Shown here piece after piece: positions 16,628 through 57,487 of a stretch of DNA of 64,000 nt. The notes under the pieces are model-generated. The model was given only the letters and a program-made list of their open reading frames with translations, was not told where the DNA came from and did not search any database. Source of the DNA: a virus; the IMG/VR virus record IMGVR_UViG_3300025237_000002, positions 1 to 64,000 of that record, one strand, 5' to 3'. The position numbers and the translations under genes were made by a program. Positions within the stretch are counted from its first letter, which is position 1. Every line of letters begins with the position of its first letter.

Positions 16628-16645
16628 AAAAAAAGTATAAAACAA

Positions 16646-16677: not shown

Positions 16678-16716
16678 CAGTAACATACACCATTAGGTGT
16701 TAAAAATAAAAATATT

Positions 16717-21235: not shown

Positions 21236-21308
21236 CGGGAAGTATATCAATTGGTAGATTACGTGCTTTGGGAGTACGAGGTTGGAGGTTCGAGTCCTCT
21301 CTTTCCGA
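21236..21308 (+). tRNA. tRNA-Pro(TGG)
   Basis: Acceptor CGGGAAG/CTTTCCG, D-arm with GG, anticodon arm CGTGC-TTTGGGA-GTACG, T-arm GGAGG-TTCGAGT-CCTCT, discriminator A. Complete cloverleaf. Confidence 0.85.
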
Positions 21309-21312
21309 CTTA

Positions 21313-21364
21313 GGGAGACTGTTATTAATTCATAGGACCAATTGTGGTAATCATAGAATTAAAT
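21313..21364 (+). repeat. tRNA spacer hairpin repeat, copy 1
   Basis: Begins GAGACTGTTATTAATTCATAGGAC. TTAATTC pairs with GAATTAA around an inner hairpin ACCA-ATTG-TGGT. Copy 2 (21710-21767) keeps the outer sequence but has a different inner hairpin. Confidence 0.6.
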
Positions 21365-21368
21365 GTAT

Positions 21369-21444
21369 CGGGGTGTGGTGCAGTAGGCGATACACGCCTG
21401 TTTTGGAAACAGGAGGTTCGAGGGTTCGAATCCCTTTGCCCCGA
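21369..21444 (+). tRNA. tRNA-Pro(TGG), second copy
   Basis: Acceptor CGGGGTG/TGCCCCG, anticodon arm CCTGT-TTTGGAA-ACAGG (TGG), T-loop TTCGAAT, discriminator A. The sequence differs widely from the first Pro tRNA, so it is not a recent duplicate. Confidence 0.85.
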
Positions 21445-21521
21445 CAAAAAATAAACTTGTAGTTTAAAATGGCAACAACAAGTATGTATGATAATTAGCT
21501 GAACAGGTACCGTCAGTGAAA

Positions 21522-21597
21522 GGTGTATAGAAAGGGGTTGCAGAATTAGAATGTGTGGTAGAGGACCGCAAGATGTGAGTTCAAATCTCACCAAAGT
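21522..21597 (+). tRNA. Degenerate tRNA-like element
   Basis: A good T-arm (GTGAG-TTCAAAT-CTCAC) and an anticodon-like stem TGTGG/CCGCA whose loop (TAGAGGA) lacks U33. No matching acceptor stem was found, so this is probably a pseudo-tRNA. Confidence 0.3.
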
Positions 21598-21608
21598 TAT
21601 TTTTATAT

Positions 21609-21703
21609 CTACCAATGCACGAGTCGGTTTAAGTGGCTGGGCTTGGACCCCAGTGACAGCTTCATGAGGTTGCTGTCCGTAGGTTCGAATCCTACTTGGT
21701 AGA
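21609..21703 (+). tRNA. tRNA with TGG (Pro) anticodon and long variable arm
   Basis: Acceptor CTACCAA/TTGGTAG, anticodon arm CTGGG-CTTGGAC-CCCAG, reading TGG by position. A 24-nt variable region forms GACAGC/GCTGTC. T-arm GTAGG-TTCGAAT-CCTAC, discriminator A. Long arms normally mark Ser, Leu or Tyr tRNAs. A one-base shift would give GGA (Ser), but the 5-bp stem then breaks. Charging identity is uncertain. Confidence 0.75.
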
Positions 21704-21709
21704 CGAGTT

Positions 21710-21767
21710 GGAGACTGTTATTAATTCATAGGACTGTCAGATACAGTGTATAAGCATAGAATTAAAT
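21710..21767 (+). repeat. tRNA spacer hairpin repeat, copy 2
   Basis: Shares GAGACTGTTATTAATTCATAGGAC and CATAGAATTAAAT with copy 1. The inner hairpin here is ACTGT-CAGAT-ACAGT, different in sequence but alike in shape. Confidence 0.6.
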
Positions 21768-21769
21768 CT

Positions 21770-21843
21770 TGGGATATCGACTAGCGGTCCAAGTCATCTG
21801 GTTTTGAACCAGAAGAGCGAGGGTTCGAATCCCTCTATCCTAA
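21770..21843 (+). tRNA. tRNA-Gln(TTG)
   Basis: Acceptor TGGGATA/TATCCTA, anticodon arm TCTGG-TTTTGAA-CCAGA, T-loop TTCGAAT, discriminator A. Confidence 0.85.
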
Positions 21844-21844
21844 C

Positions 21845-21907
21845 TACCAATATATTGTCTATTTAGTCGATATATTGGCAAAATAGATAACATATTGTCT
21901 ATTTTAT
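21845..21907 (+). repeat. Two spacer hairpins
   Basis: CCAATATAT/ATATATTGG (9 bp) followed by AAAATAGA/TCTATTTT (8 bp). Probably processing or termination structures between tRNAs. Confidence 0.5.
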
Positions 21908-21911
21908 TACT

Positions 21912-21996
21912 GGGGGTGCGCCAAAGTTGGAGAGTTGGGGCGGTCTGTAAAACCGTTGCGTAAGCTGAGTAGGTTCGATTCCTATCACCCCCACCA
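21912..21996 (+). tRNA. tRNA-Tyr(GTA) with encoded CCA
   Basis: Acceptor GGGGGTG/CACCCCC, anticodon arm GCGGT-CTGTAAA-ACCGT, a longer variable region, T-arm with loop TTCGATT, discriminator A followed by genomic CCA. Most other tRNAs here lack encoded CCA. Confidence 0.85.
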
Positions 21997-22006
21997 GTAT
22001 ATATAT

Positions 22007-22079
22007 TCCCTCGAAGCTCAAGTGGACGGGCACCCCGCTTTTAACGGGGAGATTGCGGGTTCGAAGCCCGCTGGGGGAA
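22007..22079 (+). tRNA. tRNA-Lys(TTT)
   Basis: Acceptor TCCCTCG/TGGGGGA, D-arm GCTC..., anticodon arm CCCCG-CTTTTAA-CGGGG, T-arm GCGGG-TTCGAAG-CCCGC, discriminator A. Confidence 0.88.
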
Positions 22080-22124
22080 CTGAGAGAGTTATTACGTTCT
22101 CTTCGACAAGAAAAAACGTAATTT
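22080..22124 (+). repeat. Post-Lys spacer hairpin, copy 1
   Basis: Starts CTGAGAG and contains ATTACGTT/AACGTAAT (8 bp). The spacer after the second Lys tRNA (22494-22536) has the same start and a different but paired stem. Confidence 0.6.
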
Positions 22125-22206
22125 GGGAGTATTGAGCAACTGGTCGCTCAGCAGATTGTAAATCTGTCGCCTTCGGGCATTGTGGGTTCGAATCCCTCTA
22201 TTCCCA
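22125..22206 (+). tRNA. tRNA-Tyr(GTA), second copy
   Basis: Acceptor GGGAGTA/TATTCCC, anticodon arm GCAGA-TTGTAAA-TCTGT, variable-arm hairpin GCC-TTCG-GGC, T-loop TTCGAAT, discriminator A. Confidence 0.88.
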
Positions 22207-22207
22207 C

Positions 22208-22273
22208 TAGAGTTCGTCTAAGCTAAAAGGCATCGCCTGAACGGTGAAAATGTAGGAGAATACCCTATACTCT
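22208..22273 (+). tRNA. Degenerate tRNA-like element
   Basis: AGAGT/ACTCT acceptor-like pairing, D-like GTCTAAGCTAAAAGGC, TCGCC/GGTGA with a 5-nt loop, GTAGG/CCTAT with loop AGAATAC. It parallels the element at 20138. Confidence 0.3.
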
Positions 22274-22280
22274 TAACTAT

Positions 22281-22391
22281 GGCTATAGTACTACGGTGTA
22301 CCATTCGATGAATATATTGAGTTGAATGAGAGTGGATGTGTGAGTGTTACATCACATCTTCGGTTGGGTTCGAATCCCTAGGTAGCCACCA
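22281..22391 (+). tRNA. Atypical long tRNA-like element with encoded CCA
   Basis: GGCTAT/GTAGCC acceptor-like ends, discriminator A then CCA. A long stem GATGTG/CACATC precedes the T-arm. I could not assign an anticodon arm. At 111 nt it is either a class II tRNA with an insertion or a pseudo-tRNA. Confidence 0.4.
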
Positions 22392-22419
22392 GATGTATGT
22401 TTTTGTACATTAATAATAT

Positions 22420-22493
22420 ACCTTCGTAGCTCAACTGGCTAGAGCACCTGACTTTTAATCAGGGGGTTGGGGGTTCGAGTCCCTTCGGGGGTA
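22420..22493 (+). tRNA. tRNA-Lys(TTT), second copy
   Basis: Acceptor ACCTTCG/CGGGGGT, anticodon arm CCTGA-CTTTTAA-TCAGG, T-loop TTCGAGT, discriminator A. Confidence 0.88.
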
Positions 22494-22536
22494 CTGAGAG
22501 GGTTCTATGCTCCCTTAACACAGAAAAAGCATAACT
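22494..22536 (+). repeat. Post-Lys spacer hairpin, copy 2
   Basis: Begins CTGAGAG like copy 1. Stem TATGCT/AGCATA replaces the ATTACGTT/AACGTAAT stem of copy 1, a covarying change. Confidence 0.6.
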
Positions 22537-22608
22537 GCTACCTTAGTATAAAGGCGATTACTCTGCATTTGTAACGCAGAAATCTCGGTTCGATTCCGTG
22601 AGGTAGCT
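22537..22608 (+). tRNA. tRNA-Thr(TGT)
   Basis: Acceptor GCTACCT/AGGTAGC, anticodon arm CTGCA-TTTGTAA-CGCAG (A-C mismatch next to the loop), T-loop TTCGATT, discriminator T. Confidence 0.8.
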
Positions 22609-22692
22609 CCAAAACTACTAACTCATACCGAAAAGTATGTTAATTTGGATGATTATGTATACCACTAATCATCCAAGTGTTAGAACAAATAT

Positions 22693-22765
22693 TGCTCCAT
22701 GGTGTAATTGGTAACACGTCTGTTTTTGGTGCAGAAGAGTGTGGGTTCGAGACCCGCTGGAGTAA
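22693..22765 (+). tRNA. tRNA-Gln(TTG), second copy
   Basis: Acceptor TGCTCCA/TGGAGTA, anticodon arm TCTGT-TTTTGGT-GCAGA, T-loop TTCGAGA, discriminator A. Confidence 0.82.
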
Positions 22766-22772
22766 CAAATAT

Positions 22773-22846
22773 TGCCCTATGGTGTAATTGGTTAACATAC
22801 GAGATTTTGGCTCTCGTGAGTGTGGGTTCGAGTCCCACTAGGGCTT
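22773..22846 (+). tRNA. tRNA-Gln(TTG), third copy
   Basis: Acceptor TGCCCTA/TAGGGCT with an unpaired first position (weak 1-72 pairs are typical of Gln tRNAs), anticodon arm CGAGA-TTTTGGC-TCTCG, T-arm GTGGG-TTCGAGT-CCCAC. Confidence 0.8.
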
Positions 22847-22888
22847 CAAAGGGAGATGTTCACCTAACATCTTTAAAAATAGGTTTAT

Positions 22889-22975
22889 CCCCTCATAGCT
22901 CAGTTGGTTTGGCGAAAGCCTTAGAGCATCCGTCTTTTAAACGGAGGGTCGTAGGTTCGAATCCTACTGGGGGGA
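22889..22975 (+). tRNA. tRNA-Lys(TTT) with hairpin inserted in the D-loop
   Basis: Acceptor CCCCTCA/TGGGGGG, anticodon arm TCCGT-CTTTTAA-ACGGA, T-arm GTAGG-TTCGAAT-CCTAC, discriminator A. The D-loop, otherwise AGTTGGT...TAGAGC, carries an extra ~12 nt that folds as GGC-GAAA-GCC. The rest of the tRNA is intact. Confidence 0.82.
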
Positions 22976-22982
22976 CAATAAA

Positions 22983-23053
22983 CGATGTGTGGTGTAATGT
23001 TAGCACGAGTTCCATTGGGGGACTTAGAAGAGGTTCAATTCCTTTCTCATCGA
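22983..23053 (+). tRNA. tRNA-like element, anticodon unclear
   Basis: Acceptor CGATGTG/CTCATCG (one mismatch), D-arm GTGT/GCAC, anticodon stem AGTTC/GGACT with loop CATTGGG lacking U33, T-arm AGAGG-TTCAATT-CCTTT. Either a decayed tRNA or one with an unusual loop. Confidence 0.45.
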
Positions 23054-23058
23054 CAAAT

Positions 23059-23144
23059 GCGGTGTTAGTGTAATGGACAAATATTCTAGATGAAAACACG
23101 CAACCATTCAGGTTGAGATAGAGGTTCGATTCCTTTATGCCGCT
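23059..23144 (+). tRNA. tRNA-like element with long variable arm
   Basis: Acceptor GCGGTGT/ATGCCGC, variable-arm hairpin CAACC-ATTCA-GGTTG, T-arm with loop TTCGATT, discriminator T. No standard anticodon stem could be drawn (region TTCTAGATGAAAACACG). Confidence 0.45.
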
Positions 23145-23150
23145 CTAAAA

Positions 23151-23312
23151 ATGATTGATATGAAAGAAATGAAATTTAGATATACTGGTGAATTATCTGA
23201 AGAAGCTAAGGTTAAATTAGATAAATTAAAGTTAAGAAAAGAAACAACATTGAAAAACCTACAAGATGATTATGACTCTGGTAAGTTTGACGATGAATTT
23301 AAAAACCTATAA
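23151..23312 (+). CDS. Small hypothetical protein (53 aa)
   Basis: A 53-aa charged helical protein (MIDMKEMKFRYTGELSEEAK...) starting six bases after a tRNA-like element. It probably depends on the tRNA transcript. Function unknown. Confidence 0.5.
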   Translation: MIDMKEMKFRYTGELSEEAKVKLDKLKLRKETTLKNLQDDYDSGKFDDEFKNL

Positions 23313-23321
23313 AATTATGTT

Positions 23322-23513
23322 ATGGATATTGAGAATTATTCAATCGGAGATGTATTAAGGAACAAACAAGGAATTAATGGTAAGGTGATTGGAAAGACGA
23401 TAAATTCAATTAATTTATATCATACAGCTAGAAGTAGTAAAGGTATTAATTGTACTCAATGGTACACATTACAAGACATAATTAAAAATTTTAAACATGC
23501 CGTCATAGTTTAA
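23322..23513 (+). CDS. Small hypothetical protein overlapping a tRNA
   Basis: A 63-aa protein with a beta-rich pattern (YSIGDVLRNKQGINGKVIGKTI), reminiscent of a small barrel that opens with 'G..v....g..G.V'. Its last 15 bases overlap the 5' end of tRNA-Thr(GGT), so processing of that tRNA would cut the mRNA before its stop codon. Confidence 0.55.
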   Translation: MDIENYSIGDVLRNKQGINGKVIGKTINSINLYHTARSSKGINCTQWYTLQDIIKNFKHAVIV

Positions 23514-23571
23514 GTGGTTAGAATCCTAGTGTGGTATATTAGGGGTGTCGCTTCGATTGCGATTGATGGCT
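23499..23571 (+). tRNA. tRNA-Thr(GGT)
   Basis: Acceptor GCCGTCA/TGATGGC, anticodon arm CTAGT-GTGGTAT-ATTAG, T-arm GTCGC-TTCGATT-GCGAT, discriminator T. It overlaps the 3' end of the preceding ORF. Confidence 0.8.
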
Positions 23572-23620
23572 CCACGACCAGCTGATAGTCTGGGATAACA
23601 ATAAATTAAAACTATCAAAA

Positions 23621-23694
23621 GCGAGTAACGCATAAGTGGTGGTGCGCCAGCCTTCCAAGCTGGAATAGAGTCGGTTCGATACCGTCTACTCGCT
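23621..23694 (+). tRNA. tRNA-Gly(TCC)
   Basis: Acceptor GCGAGTA/TACTCGC, D-arm GCAT...GTGC, anticodon arm CCAGC-CTTCCAA-GCTGG, T-loop TTCGATA, discriminator T. Confidence 0.85.
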
Positions 23695-23789
23695 CAAAAA
23701 AGGGGTGCTTTAATATAACCAATGACAATAGCGTTATAAATTGCTGAACTTTCTACCAAATTGATTTTTGTCGATGATATAAGGTAGTT

Positions 23790-23862
23790 GTCCTATTAGT
23801 TTAACTGGATAAAACTGGGGGTGCTAAACCCTCGGATGTGGGTTCGAATCCCATATAGGAAA
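23790..23862 (+). tRNA. tRNA, probable GCT anticodon (Ser codons) without long arm
   Basis: Acceptor GTCCTAT/ATAGGAA with a G-A first pair, D-arm with GG, anticodon stem GGGGG/CCCTC around TGCTAAA. The strict 7-nt loop puts G at position 33; shifting by one gives U33-GCT. T-arm GTGGG-TTCGAAT-CCCAT. The short variable region argues against normal serine identity. Confidence 0.6.
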
Positions 23863-23869
23863 CAATTAA

Positions 23870-24058
23870 GGGTATACTTTTGGTGTGATGAACCGACCCT
23901 CCGAGAATGGAGGTGCTTTAACTAGCTAAGTATTGAAAACGTTGAGAACATAAACTAAAGTATAGATGTACGAATACTGGGTCTGAATTATGTTAGTAGG
24001 CAAGTAAGTGGATACACGACTTCCAATCGGTATCTAGGTTTGAAACCTTCTATACCCA
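23870..24058 (+). tRNA. tRNA-Gly(TCC)-like element, possibly with insertion
   Basis: The 3' part has loop CTTCCAA within GATAC-a-CGA...TCG-GTATC and a T-arm AGG-TTTGAAA-CCT, ending TATACCC. A perfect partner, GGGTATA, lies 180 bp upstream at 23870. A weaker 5' end, GGGTCTG, lies at 23979. Either the tRNA spans 23979-24058, or a ~110-nt insertion (with a CCTCC/GGAGG hairpin) splits it. Confidence 0.4.
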
Positions 24059-24091
24059 CTAAAAACTATTTACTTATATTTAATTTTTTAG

Positions 24092-24099
24092 TATATTTG
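24092..24099 (+). promoter_or_regulatory. Probable promoter -7 box
   Basis: TATATTTG at 24092-24099 with a poor -33 match (ATTT). It precedes the ORF at 24119. Confidence 0.45.
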
Positions 24100-24118
24100 T
24101 TTATAAAAATTAAATATT

Positions 24119-24418
24119 ATGTATGATGAAAAAGTAAGTATGGGAAATAACCCTATGACAGTTAAAAAGTTGTCAGAATTAGAAAATATAATTTCTAACT
24201 TTAAAGTAGAATTAAGTAAATTAAGTGAAAATAATTATGAATTACTTAATAAGGTAGATAAAATGGTTGGTTGCGAACTACAAGATGATTGTGCAGAAAA
24301 ATCAAGTCCAACGGATGAAAATATTGTTGATGTCCTCAACGAATGTATCCGTGAATTAGGTTATAAAAATAATAATTTTAGAGAGCAATTAAGTAGATTA
24401 GGTGGTATTGTTGGATAA
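24119..24418 (+). CDS. Hypothetical coiled-coil protein (99 aa)
   Basis: A 99-aa protein with a heptad region (VKKLSELENIISNFKVELSKL...) and two cysteines in CELQDDCAE. It lies between tRNA groups with its own promoter. Function unknown. Confidence 0.6.
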   Translation: MYDEKVSMGNNPMTVKKLSELENIISNFKVELSKLSENNYELLNKVDKMVGCELQDDCAEKSSPTDENIVDVLNECIRELGYKNNNFREQLSRLGGIVG

Positions 24419-24479
24419 CCATTAAGAATGATTACTGGAGTAGAGTACCTTAATGGTCAGGTTGATAACCTCTACAAAT

Positions 24480-24551
24480 GCGGGAATAGCTCAACGGTAG
24501 AGCGTTAGATTACCAATTTAAAGGTTGTGGGTTCGAATCCCATTTCCCGCC
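24480..24551 (+). tRNA. tRNA-Gly with rare ACC anticodon
   Basis: Acceptor GCGGGAA/TTCCCGC, canonical glycine D-arm AGCTCAACGGTAGAGC, anticodon arm TTAGA-TTACCAA-TTTAA, T-arm GTGGG-TTCGAAT-CCCAT, discriminator C. The body is a typical glycine tRNA, but position 34 is A, giving ACC instead of GCC or TCC. Confidence 0.82.
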
Positions 24552-24560
24552 CAATACAAT

Positions 24561-24646
24561 GCAGTAGTCGCATAGAGGTCGATTGCCCCAGATTTCCAAT
24601 CTGGTAAGATAATATCACATCGCTGGTTCGAATCCAGTCTACTGCT
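24561..24646 (+). tRNA. tRNA with TCC (Gly) anticodon and long variable region
   Basis: Acceptor GCAGTAG/CTACTGC, anticodon arm CCAGA-TTTCCAA-TCTGG, a 17-nt variable region, T-arm CTGG-TTCGAAT-CCAG, discriminator T as in tRNA-Gly 23621. The arm length is abnormal for glycine. Confidence 0.75.
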
Positions 24647-24659
24647 CAACACGAGTTTC

Positions 24660-24693
24660 ATCTGAAACATGTATTTTAAACATGGTTTCAGAC
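24660..24693 (+). repeat. Spacer hairpin
   Basis: TCTGAAACATGT/ACATGGTTTCAGA forms a ~12-bp stem with one bulge between two tRNAs, probably a processing structure. Confidence 0.6.
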
Positions 24694-24709
24694 ATAACTC
24701 AAACATTAT

Positions 24710-24793
24710 GCCTACGTCCCATAGAGGTCGATTGGACTAGATTTGTAATCTAGAATGGAAACATCATCGTGGGTTCGAATCCCTCCGTAGGCT
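24710..24793 (+). tRNA. tRNA with TGT (Thr) anticodon and long variable region
   Basis: Acceptor GCCTACG/CGTAGGC, anticodon arm CTAGA-TTTGTAA-TCTAG, a 15-nt variable region with ATG-GAAA-CAT, T-loop TTCGAAT, discriminator T as in the two other Thr tRNAs. D-arm is nearly the same as in the tRNA at 24561. Confidence 0.78.
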
Positions 24794-24811
24794 CATAAAA
24801 AATACAATTTT

Positions 24812-29838: not shown

Positions 29839-30246
29839 ATGAATGATAATACAATTTTAGAACACTATGGTTGGACCATTGAATGTGAATCACCATTTGA
29901 AATACGACATGAAGATGGTTCGTTTGCCAGTGGGCAAGCAGCTTATACAGTTCTAATAGACTTAGTAGAAGACTATGAATGTGAAGTTATTAAGAAACCG
30001 ATTGAATTAACATTTGGACCTGATAATCATTTCGACCCTGTTGCAATAAAACATAACAATAAGGGTGAACGAATTGATTTCGCTAAAACGGTAAGATGGT
30101 TTATTAATAACGCTGAAAATTCTATTGAAAATTCTTACGATGAAGGTGCGCCAAGGCGTGTTGAAATGTATCAGTTATGTAATAGTCTTAGAAATCAATT
30201 AAAGGCTCAATTATCAAAAGAACAAATACGAGAAATTAAATTATGA
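29839..30246 (+). CDS. Hypothetical protein (135 aa)
   Basis: A 135-aa acidic protein, not recognised. Overlaps the ADP-ribosylglycohydrolase start (ATGA), so the two are co-translated and may be functionally linked. Confidence 0.55.
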   Translation: MNDNTILEHYGWTIECESPFEIRHEDGSFASGQAAYTVLIDLVEDYECEVIKKPIELTFGPDNHFDPVAIKHNNKGERIDFAKTVRWFINNAENSIENSYDEGAPRRVEMYQLCNSLRNQLKAQLSKEQIREIKL

Positions 30247-31013
30247 ATAGAGGTTACGGAGCAATATTAGGTGATTTAGCGGGGAAACCCTTTGAAAAGA
30301 AGTTTAGTATTAAGAAAAAGGATATCAAGGTTTACGCTGAAGATACAAACATTACTGATGATTCAGTAATGACATTAGCTACAATGGATGCTATTTTAAG
30401 CAACATTGATTACCAAACAGCATATCGCTATTGGGGTAATAAATACTTTAGTGATTACTATGGTAAATCGTTCAAGCTATGGTTGAAAGACCCAGCTATG
30501 AAGATGGATTCATATGGTAACGGATGTCTTATGAGAATGTCACCAATACCTCATTACTTCCGTAACAATGACTATTCTTCAATCATAGAATCAGTTGGTA
30601 GTTGTACAACTTCTCATAATCATGCATATTCAAGAAAGGCTGTTATTATATTGAATTACATTTATAATATGATTTATGAAGGTAAAACAAAAGTTGAGAT
30701 TTGGGATTGGGTTAAAGAGAATTATCCATTACCTAAACGATTTAATAAGTTTGTAGAGATAGATGCAACCTCACAAGGTACTTTACCTTACGTGTTACAT
30801 TGTTTCTTATCCACTACATCAACACACGCTTGTATTGAAATGGCGATTGGTTATGGTGGTGATACAGATACAAATGCGTCAATTGCTGCTGAATTATCAG
30901 CAACATTTTATGACGATATTTCGAAAGAAGATGTCGAGTATGTTAACAGTCATCTAGATGATTTTCAACTAGATACGTTAACAAGGTTTAATAATGCATT
31001 AAATGAAATTTAG
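30243..31013 (+). CDS. ADP-ribosylglycohydrolase (ARH/DraG family)
   Basis: A 256-aa protein with the family motifs. N-terminal GAILGDLAGKPFE is followed by EDTNITDDSVMTLAT (residues ~29-43), which ligates one metal pair. C-terminal YGGDTDTNASIAAEL (~204-218) supplies the second Asp cluster. ARH enzymes remove ADP-ribose from arginine, serine or other groups using two Mg2+ ions. With the NADAR and macrodomain proteins downstream, it is one of three ADP-ribose-removing families within 4 kb. Confidence 0.88.
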   Translation: MNRGYGAILGDLAGKPFEKKFSIKKKDIKVYAEDTNITDDSVMTLATMDAILSNIDYQTAYRYWGNKYFSDYYGKSFKLWLKDPAMKMDSYGNGCLMRMSPIPHYFRNNDYSSIIESVGSCTTSHNHAYSRKAVIILNYIYNMIYEGKTKVEIWDWVKENYPLPKRFNKFVEIDATSQGTLPYVLHCFLSTTSTHACIEMAIGYGGDTDTNASIAAELSATFYDDISKEDVEYVNSHLDDFQLDTLTRFNNALNEI

Positions 31014-31374
31014 AGAAAATTTAACAGAAAAGTTAATAGAAAAAGAAGTTCAAAAACGAGTAGGATTTAAGGTACAAGCGATAAGAACTCAATTTAAAAT
31101 GGGTTTGGATGCTTCTAAATTAGCTGATAAACATAGTTGGGGACATATACAAACTCGTGGCTTCTTAAAAGCATTTGAGATTGCACATGATATGATGGAG
31201 AAGGAGCTTACTATGGGTACTCCACATGATGGTGATTTTGAAATAAAGATTTGGAAGCGTAAAGAAAAGTTGGTTGATAAACTAACTGATAGACTTTTAA
31301 ATAGAGGTACTAGAGATTATGACCACAAAAAAAGTTTCATTAATGATAGTGTAGAAAATTTTATAGATAATTAA
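31003..31374 (+). CDS. Hypothetical helical protein (123 aa)
   Basis: A 123-aa basic, mainly helical protein. It overlaps the glycohydrolase gene by 11 bases and ends at a strong terminator. Function unknown. Confidence 0.55.
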   Translation: MKFRENLTEKLIEKEVQKRVGFKVQAIRTQFKMGLDASKLADKHSWGHIQTRGFLKAFEIAHDMMEKELTMGTPHDGDFEIKIWKRKEKLVDKLTDRLLNRGTRDYDHKKSFINDSVENFIDN

Positions 31375-31378
31375 ATTA

Positions 31379-31411
31379 AATGGTATAAAGAAATTTATAC
31401 CATTTTTTTTG
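31379..31411 (+). terminator. Strong intrinsic terminator
   Basis: 9-bp perfect stem TGGTATAAA/TTTATACCA with a GAAA loop and T8. Confidence 0.92.
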
Positions 31412-31418
31412 TTTAAAA

Positions 31419-31450
31419 CTTGTTTATGTCAATTATATTGTGTTGTATTG
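31419..31450 (+). promoter_or_regulatory. Bacteroidota-type promoter
   Basis: CTTG at 31419-31422, 20 bp, TTGTATTG at 31443-31450 (weaker -7), with ATG at 31472. Confidence 0.6.
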
Positions 31451-31471
31451 CACAATAAATAAACAAAAATT

Positions 31472-32269
31472 ATGGAACACTTGTATGACTTAAGCGCAAA
31501 CTCAAATCACGTTAAACTTTTTAAATGGCTTTGGGGCGTTGACCCAAGCATTAAATATAAAACCATGTGTCCGTACTTTTGGGCATTTGTAGGTAGTATC
31601 TTAATATTGCCGATTATTCTAGCTGTTAAATTGGTAATTTGGTTAATTAAACCTATTGCTACTTATTACACAACTTACTCTCAGAAGCAAATTGATGACT
31701 ACATCAATGGTCTATGTTTTAAATTAGATTCAAACGCTTATACCGATTATGATTTATACAAAATTCGTAAGTCTAAATGTTATAAAGGAAACCAATATAA
31801 GTTTATGGAGAGTGAAGGATATAAAACTGGTATGTATGATAAGATTGAAGAATCTTATGAGAATTATTTAAGATTATTAAATAGTAGAAAAGCGCAAGCT
31901 AAACAAACATTAGATAAGTTCAAATATGGATTTTTCGGTAAGTCTATAGGTTATATTATTGGTTTAAGTGCATTAACTTTACTTGGTTGGGGAGTACATG
32001 GATTTGTACATTTATTTACTTGGAGTCAATTTGTAACATTTTTAATTGGTCTTGGATGGGTAGTTTTAGGTATTGGTGGATTGGCACTTATTATAGCCTT
32101 AGTTATATGGATTAATGAAAAGTACGCTTGCAACTCTTTCATAAGTAGAATTGTATTCTGGAAACACATCGGTGATTTCTTTAAAGTAATAGGAAATGGG
32201 TTTTTAATTGTGTTTGATATGATTAAAAATGTATATAAGCAAAATTGTCCAATAATTCATTGGGGTTAA
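31472..32269 (+). CDS. Multi-pass membrane protein (265 aa)
   Basis: A 265-aa protein with a membrane helix near residues 40-62, a charged ~80-residue cytoplasmic stretch, two helices near 150-175 and 180-210, and another hydrophobic tail segment near 240. No family recognised. First gene after a promoter and one base upstream of the NADAR fusion. Confidence 0.6.
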   Translation: MEHLYDLSANSNHVKLFKWLWGVDPSIKYKTMCPYFWAFVGSILILPIILAVKLVIWLIKPIATYYTTYSQKQIDDYINGLCFKLDSNAYTDYDLYKIRKSKCYKGNQYKFMESEGYKTGMYDKIEESYENYLRLLNSRKAQAKQTLDKFKYGFFGKSIGYIIGLSALTLLGWGVHGFVHLFTWSQFVTFLIGLGWVVLGIGGLALIIALVIWINEKYACNSFISRIVFWKHIGDFFKVIGNGFLIVFDMIKNVYKQNCPIIHWG

Positions 32270-32270
32270 G

Positions 32271-33074
32271 ATGATAAAGCAATTCAGAGACGAATACGCT
32301 TGGTTAAGTAATATGACCCCTTGTATAATGACATACAAGGGTATTGAATATGCTACAAGTGAACATGCATACATGTCGGCAAAGTCTGATGATATGGAAT
32401 GGAAATCAAGATGTGCTGACAAACAAGTACCAGCAAAGGTAATAAAACGAGAAAGTAAAGATATCATTCTAATAGATAATTGGGAACTCTTTAAGTTCTT
32501 CGTAATGAGTGAGGTGATAGATATTAAATTTTCACTAGAACCCTTTAGAAGTCAATTGTTAGCTACTGGCGATGTTGGTATTGAAGAAGGTAATACCTGG
32601 AATGATTTATTCTGGGGTGTTGACAATTACACTCGTAAAGGTCATAACCATTTAGGGAATATTCTAATGGAGAAAAGAGACCTATTAAACTGTGAAGAAT
32701 CAAATAAAAAAACAAATATGGATATTAAAGATAAAATAGATTTTACAAAATATATGGAGTTGTCAAAACAACTAGATATTAGAGTTGGTATCATAAATGA
32801 TGCTGAAAAAATACCTAAGAGTTTCGGACTTAAATTAACGGTTCAATTCGCATGTGGTGATGATAATCATGTTACCAAGACAGCGTTCACTAACTTAGGT
32901 AAGACACACGAACCTGAAGACCTAATTGGTCTTCAATGTCCATTCATTGTTAACCTTGAACCAAGTGTTATCAAGGGTGTTACCAGTGAGGTAATGATTA
33001 TGGTTGGTGAAGAAATTGGTGGTGGGTTACAAGTTAATCCAAGTAATTATGTATCTGGAGCAAAATTAATGTAA
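32271..33074 (+). CDS. NADAR/YbiA domain fused to CsaA-like tRNA-binding domain
   Basis: A 267-aa protein. Residues ~1-142 are a NADAR (YbiA/DUF1768) domain, with FRDEYAWLSNM, GIEYATSEHAYMSAKS, and a C-terminal WNDLFWGVDNYTRKGHNHLGNILM. Residues ~160-267 match the OB-fold tRNA-binding family of CsaA/Arc1p/EMAP-II (FTKYMELSKQLDIRVGII..., SEVMIMVGEEIGGGLQV). NADAR proteins cleave N-glycosidic bonds, and some remove ADP-ribose from guanine in nucleic acid. The tRNA-binding fusion suggests the substrate is ADP-ribosylated RNA, possibly tRNA. Both domains are complete and in one frame. Confidence 0.82.
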   Translation: MIKQFRDEYAWLSNMTPCIMTYKGIEYATSEHAYMSAKSDDMEWKSRCADKQVPAKVIKRESKDIILIDNWELFKFFVMSEVIDIKFSLEPFRSQLLATGDVGIEEGNTWNDLFWGVDNYTRKGHNHLGNILMEKRDLLNCEESNKKTNMDIKDKIDFTKYMELSKQLDIRVGIINDAEKIPKSFGLKLTVQFACGDDNHVTKTAFTNLGKTHEPEDLIGLQCPFIVNLEPSVIKGVTSEVMIMVGEEIGGGLQVNPSNYVSGAKLM

Positions 33075-33322
33075 TGTTAGAAGAAATTTTAGAAACATAT
33101 GAAGATGAAGAATTATTGATTGCCGATGGTTTTGATGATGCGGTTATTGGTATAGCAACGGACTTCACAGAACCAAGACTAATCTATTCAGTAAACAAAT
33201 GTATTGAAATCTTAATGAGTGATGGTACAACTAGTTATGAAGATGCTATGGACTATTTCACGTTCAATACATCTGGTGCTTGGGTTGGAGATAAAACACC
33301 AATTTGGTGTTGGGATATTTAA
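33074..33322 (+). CDS. Hypothetical acidic protein (82 aa)
   Basis: An 82-aa acidic protein (LLIADGFDDAVIGIATDFTEPRLIYSVNKCIEIL) resembling small phage proteins annotated only as hypothetical. Single-base overlap with the NADAR fusion. Confidence 0.6.
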   Translation: MLEEILETYEDEELLIADGFDDAVIGIATDFTEPRLIYSVNKCIEILMSDGTTSYEDAMDYFTFNTSGAWVGDKTPIWCWDI

Positions 33323-33333
33323 AATAAAGTAAT

Positions 33334-33732
33334 ATGAAAATTTGGATAACATTTAATACTGTATGGAGTTTACAATCTGGTGGGTTGGAGCGGTGTCGGG
33401 TATGGTGGCAAAAACCACAATACGTTTTTATTGATAGAGAGTTCGACTACGATTCACTACCATTTGGTAGCCCTGGTGCGGCAGACCAAACGCAAGGATT
33501 AACTAGGTTGGGTTGGAGATGTTCACAAACCAATGGTAATGAGACAGGTAGTGTAAGTTTAGGTAAGATTTTCGATTATAAGGGTGATATTTGTGAATTG
33601 GTATGGGATAAGCTATGTGAATTCTTTCAAAGCACCGACCTAAGACAATGGGATAAACAAGAAGAAGAATTACAACTAAACTCTAAAGATTTCTTATTAG
33701 AATTAGATGTTGATTTCACTTTAAGTAAATAA
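33334..33732 (+). CDS. Hypothetical protein (132 aa)
   Basis: A 132-aa protein rich in Trp and Gly with no recognised domain. Last gene before a promoter. Confidence 0.55.
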   Translation: MKIWITFNTVWSLQSGGLERCRVWWQKPQYVFIDREFDYDSLPFGSPGAADQTQGLTRLGWRCSQTNGNETGSVSLGKIFDYKGDICELVWDKLCEFFQSTDLRQWDKQEEELQLNSKDFLLELDVDFTLSK

Positions 33733-33734
33733 AC

Positions 33735-33766
33735 CTTGTTTTTATCAATTATTATGTGTATATTTG
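33735..33766 (+). promoter_or_regulatory. Bacteroidota-type promoter
   Basis: CTTG at 33735-33738, 20 bp, TATATTTG at 33759-33766. Confidence 0.75.
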
Positions 33767-33788
33767 TAGTATCTTAAAAAAGAATATT

Positions 33789-34400
33789 ATGATAATACAA
33801 TTAGTAGATAGAAATGAAGGTATGGTTGATGCTTGGACAAGTGAATTTTTTGATTGTAAAGATGTTATCATCTATCACGATGATTTCTTCGCTCCACAAA
33901 CAGACTGCATCGTATCACCAGCAAATTCATTCGGATTTATGGATGGTGGTTTAGATGGTGTAATTACCAAACACTTAGGACCTAACATTCAATTTAATGT
34001 TCAATCTAGAATTGCGAAAACAACAATGAAAGAATTGTTGGTCGGTGAAGCGATGTTAGTTGAAACTGGGAATGATGAGATTCCATGGTGCATTTCAGCA
34101 CCAACAATGAGACTACCAGCAACGAAACTAACGAATACACCAAATGTTTATTTAGCCGCTAAAGCAATTTTTGGTGTATTAAAAAATCTAGAAAATACGT
34201 TTCAAACCATGATTAAAACTGTTACAATTAGTGGATTAGGTACGGGAGTTGGACAAGTACCTTTTGAAATTTGTGCTCAACAAATGAAGTTGGCATATGA
34301 TGAAGTATGGTTAGGTAAAGGTACGTCACCAAAAACTTGGTATGAAGCGTTTGATACACAACAATTACTATACAGTGATATAAATAAAGCAAGAAAATAA
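33789..34400 (+). CDS. Macrodomain protein
   Basis: A 203-aa protein starting at the ATG after the promoter. Macrodomain features are IVSPANSFGFMDGGLDGVI (residues ~44-62), the loop lining the distal ribose, and ISGLGTGVGQVPFE (~153-166), the phosphate-binding loop. Macrodomains bind or remove ADP-ribose from proteins or nucleic acid. DarG-type domains strip thymidine marks left by DarT. It heads the operon macro-Tpt1-Thg1, placing ADP-ribose handling beside RNA repair. Confidence 0.85.
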   Translation: MIIQLVDRNEGMVDAWTSEFFDCKDVIIYHDDFFAPQTDCIVSPANSFGFMDGGLDGVITKHLGPNIQFNVQSRIAKTTMKELLVGEAMLVETGNDEIPWCISAPTMRLPATKLTNTPNVYLAAKAIFGVLKNLENTFQTMIKTVTISGLGTGVGQVPFEICAQQMKLAYDEVWLGKGTSPKTWYEAFDTQQLLYSDINKARK

Positions 34401-34402
34401 TA

Positions 34403-34684
34403 ATGAACCCACAAGAAATTATAGAAAACGATAGAATGTTAAGTGCCATATTAAAAGGTTTAACCGATATGTGGCATTTCCAAGAAGAATTCCTAGCTCT
34501 GATAGTGTTTATCACTAGAGACTTTGATATAGCAAATAATACTGTTGAATACTTTGCTGATGAAGATATAGGTTTAGAAGAAGCATTGTTCCAATCAATG
34601 GATTTAGATGATTTTAAATCTATTTGTTTAAACAGTGAATACTTAGATAACGACAAATGTAAAGAATTAGTAGATGAGTGTTAA
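34403..34684 (+). CDS. Hypothetical acidic protein (93 aa)
   Basis: A 93-aa acidic helical protein, not recognised, overlapping the Tpt1 gene by 11 bases. Confidence 0.55.
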   Translation: MNPQEIIENDRMLSAILKGLTDMWHFQEEFLALIVFITRDFDIANNTVEYFADEDIGLEEALFQSMDLDDFKSICLNSEYLDNDKCKELVDEC

Positions 34685-35213
34685 GAATAACAGTAGATTT
34701 TTGAGTTTGGTTTTGAGACATAAACCTGAAACCATCGGTCTTAAATTAGATAAGAACGGTTGGGTTGATGTTGATGTGTTGTTAACTCAATTAAAAGAAC
34801 ATGACCGTGAAATGACGATGTTAGAATTAACTGAGGTTGTCACCACCAATGATAAGAAGCGTTTCGAGTTTAACGATGAAATGACCATGATTAGAGCGGC
34901 ACAAGGACATAGCGTGAAGGTTGATTTACAACTGAAAACAAAACGTCCACCAATGGAGTTATTTCATGGTACAGTGCCTAGATTCCTACCTGACATTAGG
35001 AAAGGTGGTCTAAAGAAAATGAAACGTCATGCGGTACATCTAAGTGACGATATCAAGACTGCTGAAAAAGTTGGCTCACGTAGAGGTAAAGAAATTATAT
35101 TAACTATTGAAACAGGTGCTATGTATGCGGATGGATTTAAATTCACCCAATCAAAGAACGGTGTTTGGTTAGTAGACAATGTACCAAGTAAGTACATCAA
35201 AATCAAAGAGTAA
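34674..35213 (+). CDS. kptA: RNA 2'-phosphotransferase (Tpt1/KptA family)
   Basis: A 179-aa protein of family length. N-terminal winged-helix lobe: SRFLSLVLRHKPETIGLKLDKNGWVDVD (residues ~7-34; Arg15 and His16 of the catalytic set). C-terminal lobe binds NAD+: ELFHGTVPRFLPDIRKGGLKKMKRHAVHLS (~104-133) and a later RRGKEIILTIE. Tpt1 moves a 2'-phosphate from RNA to NAD+, giving ADP-ribose 1'',2''-cyclic phosphate. Some members ADP-ribosylate RNA ends. It may repair tRNA cleaved by host nucleases or process RNA-linked ADP-ribose; both fit the neighbours. Confidence 0.88.
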   Translation: MSVKNNSRFLSLVLRHKPETIGLKLDKNGWVDVDVLLTQLKEHDREMTMLELTEVVTTNDKKRFEFNDEMTMIRAAQGHSVKVDLQLKTKRPPMELFHGTVPRFLPDIRKGGLKKMKRHAVHLSDDIKTAEKVGSRRGKEIILTIETGAMYADGFKFTQSKNGVWLVDNVPSKYIKIKE

Positions 35214-35678: not shown

Positions 35679-36461
35679 ATGAAAAAAGATGATTTAGGGG
35701 ATAGAATGAAAGGTTATGAAGCCGTTACTAAGTACAAGTTGCTTAGAAGAGGTTATACTATGATTAGAATTGATGGTAAGGCTTTTCACACCTATACAAA
35801 AGGTCTTATACGTCCATTTGATATGGGGTTGGTTGAAGATATGGATGCTACTGCTAAGTATCTTTGTAAAGAGATTCAAGGTGCTGTATGTGCATTCGTT
35901 CAATCTGATGAGATTAGTATTTTGTTATGTGATTTTGAAAATAGAAATACAAGCGCATGGTATGATAATTCATTACAAAAAATGTGTAGTGTTTCAGCAT
36001 CATTGGCAACAGCTAAATTTAATCAATTAAGAACTTCAAGAGTTATAAGTGCTGGAAAAATACTAACTGAATTTGATAATATTGTATTAGCTATATTTGA
36101 TTCAAGAGTTTACCAATTACCAGCAAAGTATGAGGTTGAAAACTATATGATTTGGAGGCAACAAGATACTGTTAAGAATAGTATTTCTAGTGTTGCACAA
36201 TCAATGTTTTCACACAAAGAATTGAATGGTAAGAATGGAAACCAGAAGCAAGAAATGATGTTTCAAAAAGATGGTACGAATTGGGATGGTTTTGACCCTA
36301 AGTTAAAGAGGGGTAGAATGATTACAAAAGAGATATATGAGAAGGAACCTGACGTTATTAGAACTAGGTATGTGAGTAACGCACCACCAACATTTACACA
36401 AGATAAGGATTATTTAAATGAATTAATCCCAGATAGAGAAATTAGTAGATTATTAGTATGA
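35679..36461 (+). CDS. tRNA-His guanylyltransferase (Thg1-like)
   Basis: A 260-aa protein with Thg1 hallmarks: GDRMKGYE at the N-terminus, MIRIDGKAFHTYTKG (residues ~28-42; metal-binding Asp after the strand), CAFVQSDEISILL (~72-84; second Asp and Glu) and a KMCSVSASLATAKFN helix. Thg1 enzymes add nucleotides 3' to 5'. Bacterial and phage members (TLPs) can rebuild damaged tRNA 5' ends from a template. With Tpt1 and 2H proteins nearby, a tRNA-repair role is plausible. Overlaps the phosphatase start. Confidence 0.87.
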   Translation: MKKDDLGDRMKGYEAVTKYKLLRRGYTMIRIDGKAFHTYTKGLIRPFDMGLVEDMDATAKYLCKEIQGAVCAFVQSDEISILLCDFENRNTSAWYDNSLQKMCSVSASLATAKFNQLRTSRVISAGKILTEFDNIVLAIFDSRVYQLPAKYEVENYMIWRQQDTVKNSISSVAQSMFSHKELNGKNGNQKQEMMFQKDGTNWDGFDPKLKRGRMITKEIYEKEPDVIRTRYVSNAPPTFTQDKDYLNELIPDREISRLLV

Positions 36462-38390: not shown

Positions 38391-38972
38391 ATGAATAACA
38401 AAGAAATAATTAAAGAAGAATTAAGAAAAAAATTATTATTAGAGAAAAAAGGAGATTCACATAGCTACGGGTGTGTGATGTTATTTTTTGATATTGGAAA
38501 AGGTAACTGGAAAAAGATTCAATCATTGATTGATGATGATGACATTTACACTGAGGAAGGTGACCAAAGTTATGGGAGAGAGAATGAACCTCACGTAACC
38601 ATTTTATATGGTTTACATGATGATATTGAAGACTCTACAATTGAAGCTTTGATTGATGAAATTAAACCGACTAAATTGACGCTTAAGAAAATCTCATTAT
38701 TTGAGAACGATAAGTTTGATGTGGTTAAATTTGATGTAATTGGAGTGAGTGAAGGTAGATTAGGTAAAATGAATGCTAAGTTCGCTGAATTACCTCATAC
38801 AACTGACTTCCCAGACTATCACCCACATGCAACTATTGCATATGTTAAAGCTGGAACAGGTAAGAAATACATTCAAACCCTATCAAGCGAAGACGCAATT
38901 ACTGTTGAATGTAATGACGTGGTATATAGCAAAGCTGATGATACTAAAAACAAATATAAATTGAAGAAATGA
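38391..38972 (+). CDS. 2H phosphoesterase (LigT/Acb1-like)
   Basis: A 193-aa protein with two HxT motifs, PHVTILYGLH (residues ~68-77) and PHATIAYVKAG (~144-154), the defining active site of 2H phosphoesterases. Family members open 2',3'-cyclic phosphates, ligate tRNA halves or, as phage Acb1, destroy the cyclic oligonucleotides of CBASS defence. An N-terminal ~25-residue charged helix precedes the domain. Its context (Tpt1, Thg1) favours RNA-end or ADP-ribose cyclic-phosphate processing, but an anti-CBASS role is equally testable. Confidence 0.82.
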   Translation: MNNKEIIKEELRKKLLLEKKGDSHSYGCVMLFFDIGKGNWKKIQSLIDDDDIYTEEGDQSYGRENEPHVTILYGLHDDIEDSTIEALIDEIKPTKLTLKKISLFENDKFDVVKFDVIGVSEGRLGKMNAKFAELPHTTDFPDYHPHATIAYVKAGTGKKYIQTLSSEDAITVECNDVVYSKADDTKNKYKLKK

Positions 38973-39151: not shown

Positions 39152-39504
39152 TGAGACTAGACTATAAGAAGTTAAATAAAGAATTCCCTAAAGCAACTAT
39201 TTTGTTAGGGGCTTTGATTAATACACCAAATAAGTTAATAAAATTCTTTGACTCAAATGGTGTTAGGGTTTATTTAGGTTACGGAGCCAGTGGTGGAACT
39301 AGTGTTGAAGTTTATCGTAAGAGAACTTCTAAGGAGTTTAAAAAACTAAATCCAAATTCTAACTTAGACGTGAACTGGCAAATGACCAGAGTTGGAATCA
39401 TTAATAGCTTTAGAACTAGAGATGAAGCCTATAAAGTTGGGTTTGAGGAAGCATTCAAACAATTAGAATATTTAATAAATAATAAAGATGAAAACACAAA
39501 TTAA
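39151..39504 (+). CDS. Hypothetical protein (117 aa)
   Basis: A 117-aa protein, mixed alpha/beta (KATILLGALINTPNKLIKFF...). No domain recognised. Overlaps the YqeY gene by 17 bases. Confidence 0.55.
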   Translation: MRLDYKKLNKEFPKATILLGALINTPNKLIKFFDSNGVRVYLGYGASGGTSVEVYRKRTSKEFKKLNPNSNLDVNWQMTRVGIINSFRTRDEAYKVGFEEAFKQLEYLINNKDENTN

Positions 39505-39892
39505 AAACGACATGGTACAAGCCATGAAAGATAAGAATGTTGTCGCTAGAGACATTCTTAGAGTGCTTATGGGTGAAATCCAAAGGGACGAAAATACCAT
39601 TAAAGGTGGTAAAGTTGAAGTAACTGATGAAGCCATTCAAAAGATGGTTAAGAAGTTAATTGAAAGTGTTAAAGAATCTGGTGATAATGGTGAAATTGAA
39701 TTGTTAGAAGGGTATTTACCTCAACAATTAACAAACGATGAGATGATAGGTCACGCTAGAGTGTTCATCGAATCAAATAATCTTAGCTCTCCAAAAGAAA
39801 TGGGACGAGTTATGGGCTACTTTAGTCAAGCATTTGCGGGAACGTATGATGGTAAGGCTTTAAGTGGTATTGTTAAAAATTTATTGACATGA
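39488..39892 (+). CDS. yqeY: YqeY / GatB-tail-like protein
   Basis: A 134-aa protein matching the YqeY family: IKNDMVQAMKDKNVVARDILRVLMGEIQ, then EAIQKMVKKLIESVKES, then IELLEGYLPQQLTNDEM and MGRVMGYFS. It resembles the helical tail of GatB, part of the tRNA-dependent amidotransferase, and probably binds tRNA. Length is slightly below bacterial YqeY (~148). Adds to the RNA theme of the region. Confidence 0.85.
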   Translation: MKTQIKNDMVQAMKDKNVVARDILRVLMGEIQRDENTIKGGKVEVTDEAIQKMVKKLIESVKESGDNGEIELLEGYLPQQLTNDEMIGHARVFIESNNLSSPKEMGRVMGYFSQAFAGTYDGKALSGIVKNLLT

Positions 39893-56944: not shown

Positions 56945-57487
56945 ATGAATAAAAATGAAATTACAAAAGTTTCTGTCTTCGACTTTGACGGAACTTTAAT
57001 AGATACTACAATGCCTGAAATTGGTAAAGAGATGTGGAAAAAAGCCACTGGCGAAGACTTCCCTCACAAAGGGTGGTGGTCTAAGCGAGAGTCTTTAGAT
57101 ATTAACATTTATCCTAACAATGTCTTTGATGATATCCTAGCAGAATTCAACAAAGCCAAAGGTAATGCAAATACGTTTGTTGCCTTATGTACAGGTAGAA
57201 TTACACCATTAACAAATCAAGTAAAAGCCATCTTAGATAAACATAATTTGGTATTTGATGATGTTGTATTGACTGGTGATAAAAGGTTTAACAATGGTGC
57301 TAGTGATACATTAACATTTAAAATAAATTATTTATCATCTTTGCAAGACCAATTCCCTAATTTAGAGATGATTGAGTTCTTTGATGATAGAGACCATCAC
57401 CAAGCGACATTCCAACAATGGGGTAAGTTGCAACCAATACCAGTACATATTCATCACGTTCAACGTGATAGTGATAGCAGTCATTAA
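56945..57487 (+). CDS. HAD-superfamily (SAK RNA-repair-like) protein
   Basis: A 180-aa protein with HAD motif I VFDFDGTLIDT (residues ~10-20), motif II-type LCTGRITPL, and motif IV EFFDDRDHH (~153). The order and TGR-x-TPL element resemble phage 'Swiss Army Knife' RNA-repair-like HAD proteins, which may remove terminal phosphates from nucleic acid. Three tandem mini-hairpins begin at its stop codon. Confidence 0.75.
   Translation: MNKNEITKVSVFDFDGTLIDTTMPEIGKEMWKKATGEDFPHKGWWSKRESLDINIYPNNVFDDILAEFNKAKGNANTFVALCTGRITPLTNQVKAILDKHNLVFDDVVLTGDKRFNNGASDTLTFKINYLSSLQDQFPNLEMIEFFDDRDHHQATFQQWGKLQPIPVHIHHVQRDSDSSH

What the first reader, a model, noticed from the sequence alone, without database searches (positions are those of the whole stretch)
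30243..35213. Island of three ADP-ribose-erasing families plus Tpt1
ARH, NADAR and macrodomain proteins, each able to remove ADP-ribose by a different chemistry, occur within 5 kb together with Tpt1, which uses NAD+ and makes ADP-ribose cyclic phosphate. This looks like a broad counter-defence against ADP-ribosylation.
Basis: inference. Interest (0 to 1): 0.82.

Follow-up and report, generated by a model that had tools for sequence, protein, structure and literature searches.

The report
Phage NAD and ADP-ribose repair island
A large bacterial virus carries a conserved block of genes that appear to mend damaged transfer RNA with the cofactor NAD+, clear the ADP-ribose by-products and rebuild NAD+; the kit is mostly known from other giant phages, but one eraser is fused to a tRNA-binding domain in a way I could not find described.

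Summary
ARH (30243-31013), NADAR (32271-33074), a macrodomain (ATG 33789-34400) and Tpt1 (34674-35213) all exceed curated cut-offs and keep key motifs, in a tight + strand array. Related phage contigs share the order, so it is not a chance pile.

The island continues with Thg1, a 2H phosphoesterase, NadM-Nudix, NAMPT, a sirtuin and PRPP synthetase. The macrodomain's nearest solved structure, clearly ahead of DarG or MacroD types, is yeast YMX7, an ADP-ribose-1''-monophosphatase acting on the Tpt1 by-product pathway; one of YMX7's three proposed catalytic residues is replaced. The NADAR is YbiA-type, not DarT1-type, and is fused to a Trbp111/MetRS-like tRNA-binding domain; in relatives that domain is free-standing, once beside an RNA ligase.

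Best reading: NAD+-dependent tRNA repair with by-product disposal and NAD+ regeneration (counter-defence against tRNA cleavage and NAD+ depletion), with ARH and NADAR as adduct removers. All activity is inferred. Published surveys (PMC9503650, PMC7824862) already describe this network, so I rate it a new variant of a known kind. The NADAR-tRNA-binding fusion is the novel part and suggests a tRNA de-ADP-ribosylase.

The parts
21236..24794 (+). tRNA gene cluster (20 predicted tRNAs)
   Evidence: ARAGORN
30243..31013 (+). ARH / ADP-ribosylglycohydrolase (DraG-like), 256 aa
   Evidence: PF03747 81 bits, phrog_6572; TDDS and GGDTDT motifs
31003..31374 (+). conserved unknown (g31003)
   Evidence: homologues in L013, L014, L016
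32271..33074 (+). NADAR (YbiA-type) fused to C-terminal tRNA_bind (Trbp111/MetRS-beta-like) domain, 267 aa
   Evidence: PF08719 54.8 and PF01588 32.5 bits; fold matches YbiA 2b3w Z 18.4 and MetRS-C/CsaA/Trbp111 Z about 7
33074..33322 (+). conserved unknown (phrog_13182)
   Evidence: near Tpt1 also in L054, L056, L068, L077
33334..33732 (+). unknown, shared with L016 only
33789..34400 (+). macrodomain, phrog_2613, YMX7-like
   Evidence: PF01661, PF14519, phrog_2613; best fold 1njr Z 18.5
34403..34684 (+). conserved unknown between macro and Tpt1
   Evidence: homologues in the same place in L013, L016, L092
34674..35213 (+). Tpt1/KptA RNA 2'-phosphotransferase
   Evidence: PF01885 173 bits, NF002014 245 bits over cut-off 239
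35679..36461 (+). Thg1 tRNA-His guanylyltransferase
   Evidence: PF04446 95.5 bits
36458..37243 (+). calcineurin-like phosphoesterase, ApaH-like N-terminus
   Evidence: PF00149 39 bits, weak ApaH matches
38391..38972 (+). 2H phosphoesterase, HVT and HAT motifs
   Evidence: PF13563 37.7 bits, Acb1 PF23474 23.9 bits below cut-off; motifs conserved
39488..39892 (+). YqeY-like protein
   Evidence: PF09424 78 bits
41000..42034 (+). NadM-type NMN adenylyltransferase fused to Nudix
   Evidence: PF00293 46 bits; PRK05379 below cut-off; 2qjt/2qjo; HEGH and Nudix box
43808..45475 (+). NAMPT (NadV-like)
   Evidence: PF04095 51 bits, PF18127 29 bits; 7yqo 132 bits
49844..50533 (+). sirtuin
   Evidence: PF02146 123 bits
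52011..52973 (+). PRPP synthetase
   Evidence: TIGR01251 254 bits over cut-off 113
56945..57487 (+). HAD phosphatase of the Swiss-army-knife RNA-repair type
   Evidence: PF10307 54 bits

Best explanation
The four genes are the core of a phage NAD+/ADP-ribose region of about 23 kb that serves tRNA repair and NAD+ upkeep. Proposed flow: host RNases cut tRNAs; the 2H enzyme opens 2',3'-cyclic phosphate ends; [quoted passage not shown] 2H and the YMX7-like macrodomain turn this into ADP-ribose; the Nudix domain of NadM cuts ADP-ribose to ribose-5-phosphate and AMP; Prs, NAMPT and NadM rebuild NAD+. The NADAR-tRNA-binding fusion and ARH remove ADP-ribose stuck on tRNA (or RNA ends) and on protein. 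Shown here: gene identities, intact key motifs, conserved order, nearest folds, linkage to NAD+ genes. Inferred: every substrate, the order of steps, and that the pathway runs in infected cells.
For: Order conserved in three groups of relatives. L017 keeps only Tpt1, metallophosphatase, 2H, NadM-Nudix and NAMPT, without macro, NADAR or ARH nearby, so the Tpt1/NAD part is the stabler core there. Tpt1 linked to NAMPT, ARH and NADAR outside this clade, p 0.011, 0.0018, 0.032 under a uniform null, thymidylate synthase control p 0.62. Macrodomain: 1njr YMX7 ADP-ribose-1''-monophosphatase is top by Foldseek (1e-10, next 1.4e-6), by VIA (Z 18.5 over 177 residues against 15.9 for the next) and by profile (4e-11). 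NADAR fused to a tRNA-binding fold; the same domain stands alone beside NADAR in L016 and beside PTH2, Nudix and a T4 Rnl1-like RNA ligase in L151. The near relative G001 has an Rnl1-like ligase start. In G005 a NADAR is fused to an adenylyltransferase-like domain beside NAMPT and ARH. NadM-Nudix homologues are known bifunctional enzymes.
Against: No RNA ligase (PF09511) in the 110.5-kb record, though it may be a fragment. YMX7 residue H145 is a serine here, N80 and D90 are kept (that these three are the proposed catalytic residues is from my memory of the YMX7 structure paper). Macro-Tpt1 linkage outside this clade is not above chance, Klebsiella jumbo phages being the one close case. The 2H enzyme is also weakly like the anti-CBASS protein Acb1. 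Linkage p-values ignore relatedness, multiple testing and general clustering of accessory genes.
Confidence: 0.5

Rival explanations
1. Counter-defence against soluble ADP-ribose signals and toxins plus NAD+ rebuilding: macrodomain, NADAR, 2H and Nudix destroy cADPR-type or ADP-ribose-1''-phosphate molecules made by host immunity, and NAMPT+NadM restore NAD+.
For: Proposed for phages in general (PMC9503650). A phage glycosidase that degrades cADPR signals and feeds ADP-ribose to NARP1 shows the principle (PMC13232231). NAMPT and NadM-Nudix are in the island; a YMX7-like macrodomain would fit ADP-ribose-1''-phosphate as a toxin too.
Against: Does not explain Tpt1, Thg1 or the tRNA-binding fusion. 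The NAMPT lacks the Namat motif, so free ADP-ribose is not directly turned into NAD+ (PMC12774641).
Confidence: 0.22
2. One reading: broad removal of host-made ADP-ribosylation on DNA, RNA and protein (DarTG, CmdTAC and the like) by three erasers.
For: Three unrelated hydrolase families with intact motifs. NADARs reverse guanine ADP-ribosylation in DNA and RNA, and macro/ARH enzymes reverse phosphate-end RNA adducts (PMC11833690). A DarG-like antitoxin mimic in a phage is known (PMC11481870, title and abstract only).
Against: NADAR is YbiA-type and such NADARs did not protect from DarT1 (PMC11125620). Macrodomain is nearer YMX7 than DarG. No DarT in 17 records. Adenine adducts of CmdT are called irreversible (PMC13036486).
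Confidence: 0.15
3. Control of the phage's own ADP-ribosylation: a phage PARP is the writer and ARH, macro and NADAR are erasers.
For: PARP catalytic domains over cut-off in 12 of 43 Tpt1-bearing records, including the nearest relative G001 and L017, but only 14 of 50,697 phage records match one phage PARP by tblastn. In G039 a macrodomain gene lies directly upstream of PARP in an NAMPT/NAD synthase/ligase cluster.
Against: No PARP in the 110.5-kb record of this phage. PARP is not linked to Tpt1 (0 of 10 outside the clade) and is 30 kb away in G001.
Confidence: 0.07
4. No shared function: a region where large phages collect accessory genes.
For: NADAR and Macro are found in about half of jumbo phages (PMC9503650), so meetings are expected; the linkage test is only moderate.
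Against: Same order in relatives, overlapping genes, control family not linked.
Confidence: 0.06

Closest known systems
Phage NAD+-ADPr networks and KptA-based RNA repair in jumbo phages (Iyer et al. 2022, PMC9503650; PMC7824862)
   Same: KptA/Tpt1 with 2H, Macro, NADAR and Nudix; NadV-NadM salvage; NADAR near NadM and NadV; SAK-HAD phosphatase; many tRNAs; sporadic Thg1
   Different: Here they sit in one conserved ordered array with ARH (ARH reported in only about 5% of jumbo phages), and NADAR is fused to a tRNA-binding domain
Yeast tRNA-splicing by-product pathway (Tpt1, cyclic phosphodiesterase, ADP-ribose-1''-phosphatase)
   Same: Tpt1 with essential tetrad; a 2H enzyme; a macrodomain whose nearest fold is YMX7
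   Different: Phage genes; one YMX7 active-site histidine replaced; cyclic phosphodiesterase role of the 2H untested
NAD+ salvage by NAMPT plus NadM (NARP2-type)
   Same: NAMPT, NMN adenylyltransferase and PRPP synthetase in one region
   Different: Not NARP1: no Namat signature
DarT1-NADAR (DarTG1) antitoxin
   Same: NADAR fold and conserved E and K
   Different: YbiA-type residue, no DarT partner, C-terminal tRNA-binding domain instead of the N-terminal DNA-binding extension

Membership tests
[quoted passage not shown]
   PMC6333775
[quoted passage not shown]
   needs biochemistry
ARH / ADP-ribosylglycohydrolase | profile over cut-off and metal-site motifs TDD and GDxDT | tested here: met
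NADAR, YbiA subfamily | NADAR profile, conserved E and K, Glu (not Asp or His) at the last-strand position | tested here: met
   position assigned from alignment, uncertain by one residue; PMC11543638
DarTG1 antitoxin | catalytic Asp of the BC4488 type and adjacent DarT | tested here: not met
   Glu instead of Asp; no DarT in the record
Macro2 / ADP-ribose-1''-monophosphatase (YMX7) | nearest fold and profile | tested here: met
   (PF14519)
Macro2 / ADP-ribose-1''-monophosphatase (YMX7) | YMX7 residues N80, D90, H145 | tested here: not met
   N and D kept, H replaced by S, so it is not filed as this enzyme
NARP1 (Adps-Namat) | Namat motif GSX..TRD | tested here: not met
   window has GVGGGLRNPLKRD as in NAMPT; PMC12774641
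NARP2-type NAMPT+NMNAT salvage | NAMPT and NMN adenylyltransferase both encoded | tested here: met
2H phosphoesterase | two HxT motifs | tested here: met
Acb1 anti-CBASS | score over Pfam cut-off | tested here: not met
   23.9 bits, cut-off 27
tRNA_bind (Trbp111/MetRS-beta) | profile over cut-off and OB fold | tested here: met
   the model of this half has low to middling confidence

The most novel reading that the evidence does not exclude
The NADAR-tRNA-binding fusion is a dedicated tRNA de-ADP-ribosylase: it finds tRNA by its Trbp111-like domain and removes ADP-ribose from tRNA guanine. That would imply bacterial anti-phage systems that block tRNA by base ADP-ribosylation, and phages that carry a repair enzyme for it next to Tpt1 and Thg1.
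Probability: 0.2. Interest if true: 0.75.

Novelty: new variant of a known kind. Interest (0 to 1): 0.52.

Why it matters
What bacterial and phage Tpt1 and NADAR enzymes do is an open question. A conserved phage array that puts Tpt1, a YMX7-like macrodomain, a 2H enzyme, NAD+ rebuilding genes and a tRNA-tethered NADAR together gives a concrete, testable pathway: by-products of NAD+-dependent RNA repair recycled to NAD+ by the phage itself. The tethered NADAR also points to tRNA as an ADP-ribosylation target in phage-host conflict.

Tried and rejected
NARP1 (ADP-ribose straight to NAD+) was considered because Prs and NAMPT homologues are both present; rejected on the missing Namat motif. A DarT or PARP partner in this record was sought and not found; the record may be incomplete, so absence is weak. 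Defence-system profiles (PADLOC) gave nothing useful. Nucleotide search of the phage collection gave no match. A single-sequence search with the NADAR fusion found no relative in IMG/VR, while its tRNA-binding half alone found five loci, none fused to NADAR, so the fusion rests on one genome. PARP and Macro linkage to Tpt1 outside the clade is not above chance. The paper search for NADAR with tRNA-binding domain found nothing relevant; only open-licence papers were searched. Only part of the proteins of the record were scanned with Pfam, so a divergent ADP-ribosyltransferase may be missed.
Full report
Observation. Pfam scores exceed the curated cut-offs for ADP_ribosyl_GH, NADAR, Macro and PTS_2-RNA, and PHROGs agree. 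Key motifs are intact. [quoted passage not shown] The genes overlap or nearly touch. The macrodomain probably starts at ATG 33789, where its relatives start, rather than GTG 33756. The window is part of a 110,535-base virus record that may be a fragment.

The island is larger than the finding. Next to it lie Thg1, a calcineurin-like phosphoesterase, a 2H phosphoesterase with HVT and HAT motifs, a NadM-type adenylyltransferase fused to Nudix, NAMPT, a sirtuin and PRPP synthetase, YqeY and a Swiss-army-knife HAD phosphatase; 20 tRNAs lie upstream.

Conservation. Alignment-based scans of IMG/VR with Tpt1 and with the macrodomain returned 80 and 55 loci. L092, L093 and L094 carry ARH, NADAR, g33074, Macro, g34403, Tpt1, Thg1, metallophosphatase, 2H, NadM-Nudix and NAMPT in the window's order; L013/L014 carry NADAR, Macro, g34403, Tpt1, metallophosphatase, 2H and Prs; L016 carries NADAR, g33074, g33334, Macro, g34403, Tpt1 and Thg1; L017 keeps Tpt1, metallophosphatase, 2H, NadM-Nudix and NAMPT, followed by a PARP. 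Klebsiella jumbo phages have Tpt1 and a macrodomain about 2 kb apart, with NMN adenylyltransferase and PnuC in the same region.

Linkage test. Whole-record positions of Tpt1, Macro, NAMPT, NADAR, ARH, PARP and a thymidylate synthase control were taken for 43 Tpt1-bearing records. With the window-like clade removed, and within 12 kb of Tpt1: NAMPT 6 of 17 (expected 2.1, p 0.011), NADAR 5 of 16 (2.0, p 0.032), ARH 4 of 8 (0.63, p 0.0018), Macro 2 of 10 (2.1), PARP 0 of 10 (1.2), thymidylate synthase 1 of 10 (0.92). ARH lies within 6 kb of NAMPT in 3 of 5 (0.2, p 0.0005). The null is uniform placement, no correction was made for the several tests or for relatedness, and accessory genes cluster anyway, so these p-values are optimistic. 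They support a tie between Tpt1, ARH, NADAR and NAD+ synthesis, not a general Macro-Tpt1 tie.

NADAR fusion. The 267-residue protein has NADAR in residues 6-139 and tRNA_bind in 170-250. The AlphaFold model is confident for the NADAR half and low to middling for the second half. Fold comparison gives YbiA (Z 18.4) and P. nicotianae NADAR (16.5) for the first half, and MetRS-C, CsaA and Trbp111 (about 7) for the second. In L016 the NADAR is a separate gene flanked by two free-standing tRNA_bind genes, and in L151 the tRNA_bind gene sits with PTH2, Nudix, a kinase-like gene and a T4 Rnl1-like ligase. The second half of the fusion begins at a methionine that matches the start of the free-standing proteins, so a separate product from an internal start is possible. 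The NADAR keeps E31 and K38 and has Glu at the subfamily position, which marks the YbiA type rather than the Asp of DarT1 antitoxins (PMC11543638). NADARs reverse guanosine ADP-ribosylation in RNA (PMC11833690), but YbiA-type and phage NADARs did not rescue cells from DarT1 (PMC11125620). I infer that tRNA, or RNA at a repair site, is the likely target.

Macrodomain. Sequence profile, Foldseek and VIA-align all put yeast YMX7 (1njr, ADP-ribose-1''-monophosphatase) first, ahead of DarG, YmdB and MacroD2. YMX7 N80 and D90 are kept; H145 is serine here. So it works plausibly like that enzyme but is not filed as one.

NAD+ side. The NAMPT carries GVGGGLRNPLKRD, as NAMPT does, not the Namat signature GSX..TRD (PMC12774641), so this is NAMPT plus NadM salvage rather than NARP1. 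The nearest solved relatives of the NadM-Nudix protein are bifunctional NMN adenylyltransferase/Nudix enzymes; from general knowledge these hydrolyse ADP-ribose, which would let the phage turn ADP-ribose into ribose-5-phosphate for PRPP synthetase. That loop is inference.

Writers. PARP domains occur in 12 of the 43 Tpt1-bearing records, including the near relative G001 and L017, against 14 of 50,697 phage records for a tblastn search with one such PARP; the two searches differ in sensitivity, so this is only a rough contrast. G039 has NAMPT, a macrodomain, NAD synthase, a second macrodomain directly upstream of PARP, and an NAD+-dependent DNA ligase in one cluster. This record has neither PARP nor DarT.

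What is known. The phage NAD+-ADPr network, including KptA with 2H, Macro and NADAR in RNA repair and NADAR beside NadM and NadV, was laid out in PMC9503650 and PMC7824862. A phage enzyme that degrades ADP-ribose signals and feeds NAD+ synthesis has been shown (PMC13232231). New here are the specific conserved array with ARH, and the NADAR-tRNA-binding fusion. I therefore call it a new variant of a known kind.

Noticed in passing
L147 709-1998; L017 18622-19893; L157 5428-7110: Phage PARP proteins (PF00644 domain, WGR-like N-terminus by eye) in Tpt1-bearing phages; in L157 a small macrodomain resembling TARG1 by eye is directly upstream of PARP, inside a Prs-NAMPT-Macro-NAD synthase-RecJ-like-Macro-PARP-NAD+-dependent ligase cluster.
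   Followed up: partly
L158 784-1374: T4 Rnl1-like RNA ligase start followed by an intein/Hint match in the nearest relative G001 (PF14890 34.9 bits, just under its cut-off).
   Followed up: partly
L156 3994-5385: NADAR fused to a cytidylyltransferase-like (NMN adenylyltransferase-type) domain beside NAMPT and ARH in a 543-kb phage, with Tpt1 about 9 kb on.
   Followed up: partly
window 9926-13174: Substrate-binding protein fused to an OmpA-like domain, a permease and an ABC ATPase: looks like a nitrate/taurine-type transporter in a phage (by eye from the translations).
   Followed up: no
window 28235-29122: TET-associated glycosyltransferase (PF20691, 119.5 bits) just upstream of the island, hinting at modified DNA bases.
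   Followed up: no
window 4456-4857: YAcAr-family SLOG domain (PF10686, 41 bits), another predicted NAD+/ADP-ribose-related domain.
   Followed up: no
window 23790-23863: tRNA with CTA anticodon (called tRNA-Pyl by ARAGORN), a possible amber suppressor.
   Followed up: no
L006 (PQ182779) 14868-17912; L138 and L140: Klebsiella jumbo phages carry Tpt1 and a macrodomain annotated as 'tail protein' about 2 kb apart, near PnuC and NMN adenylyltransferase in L006.
   Followed up: partly
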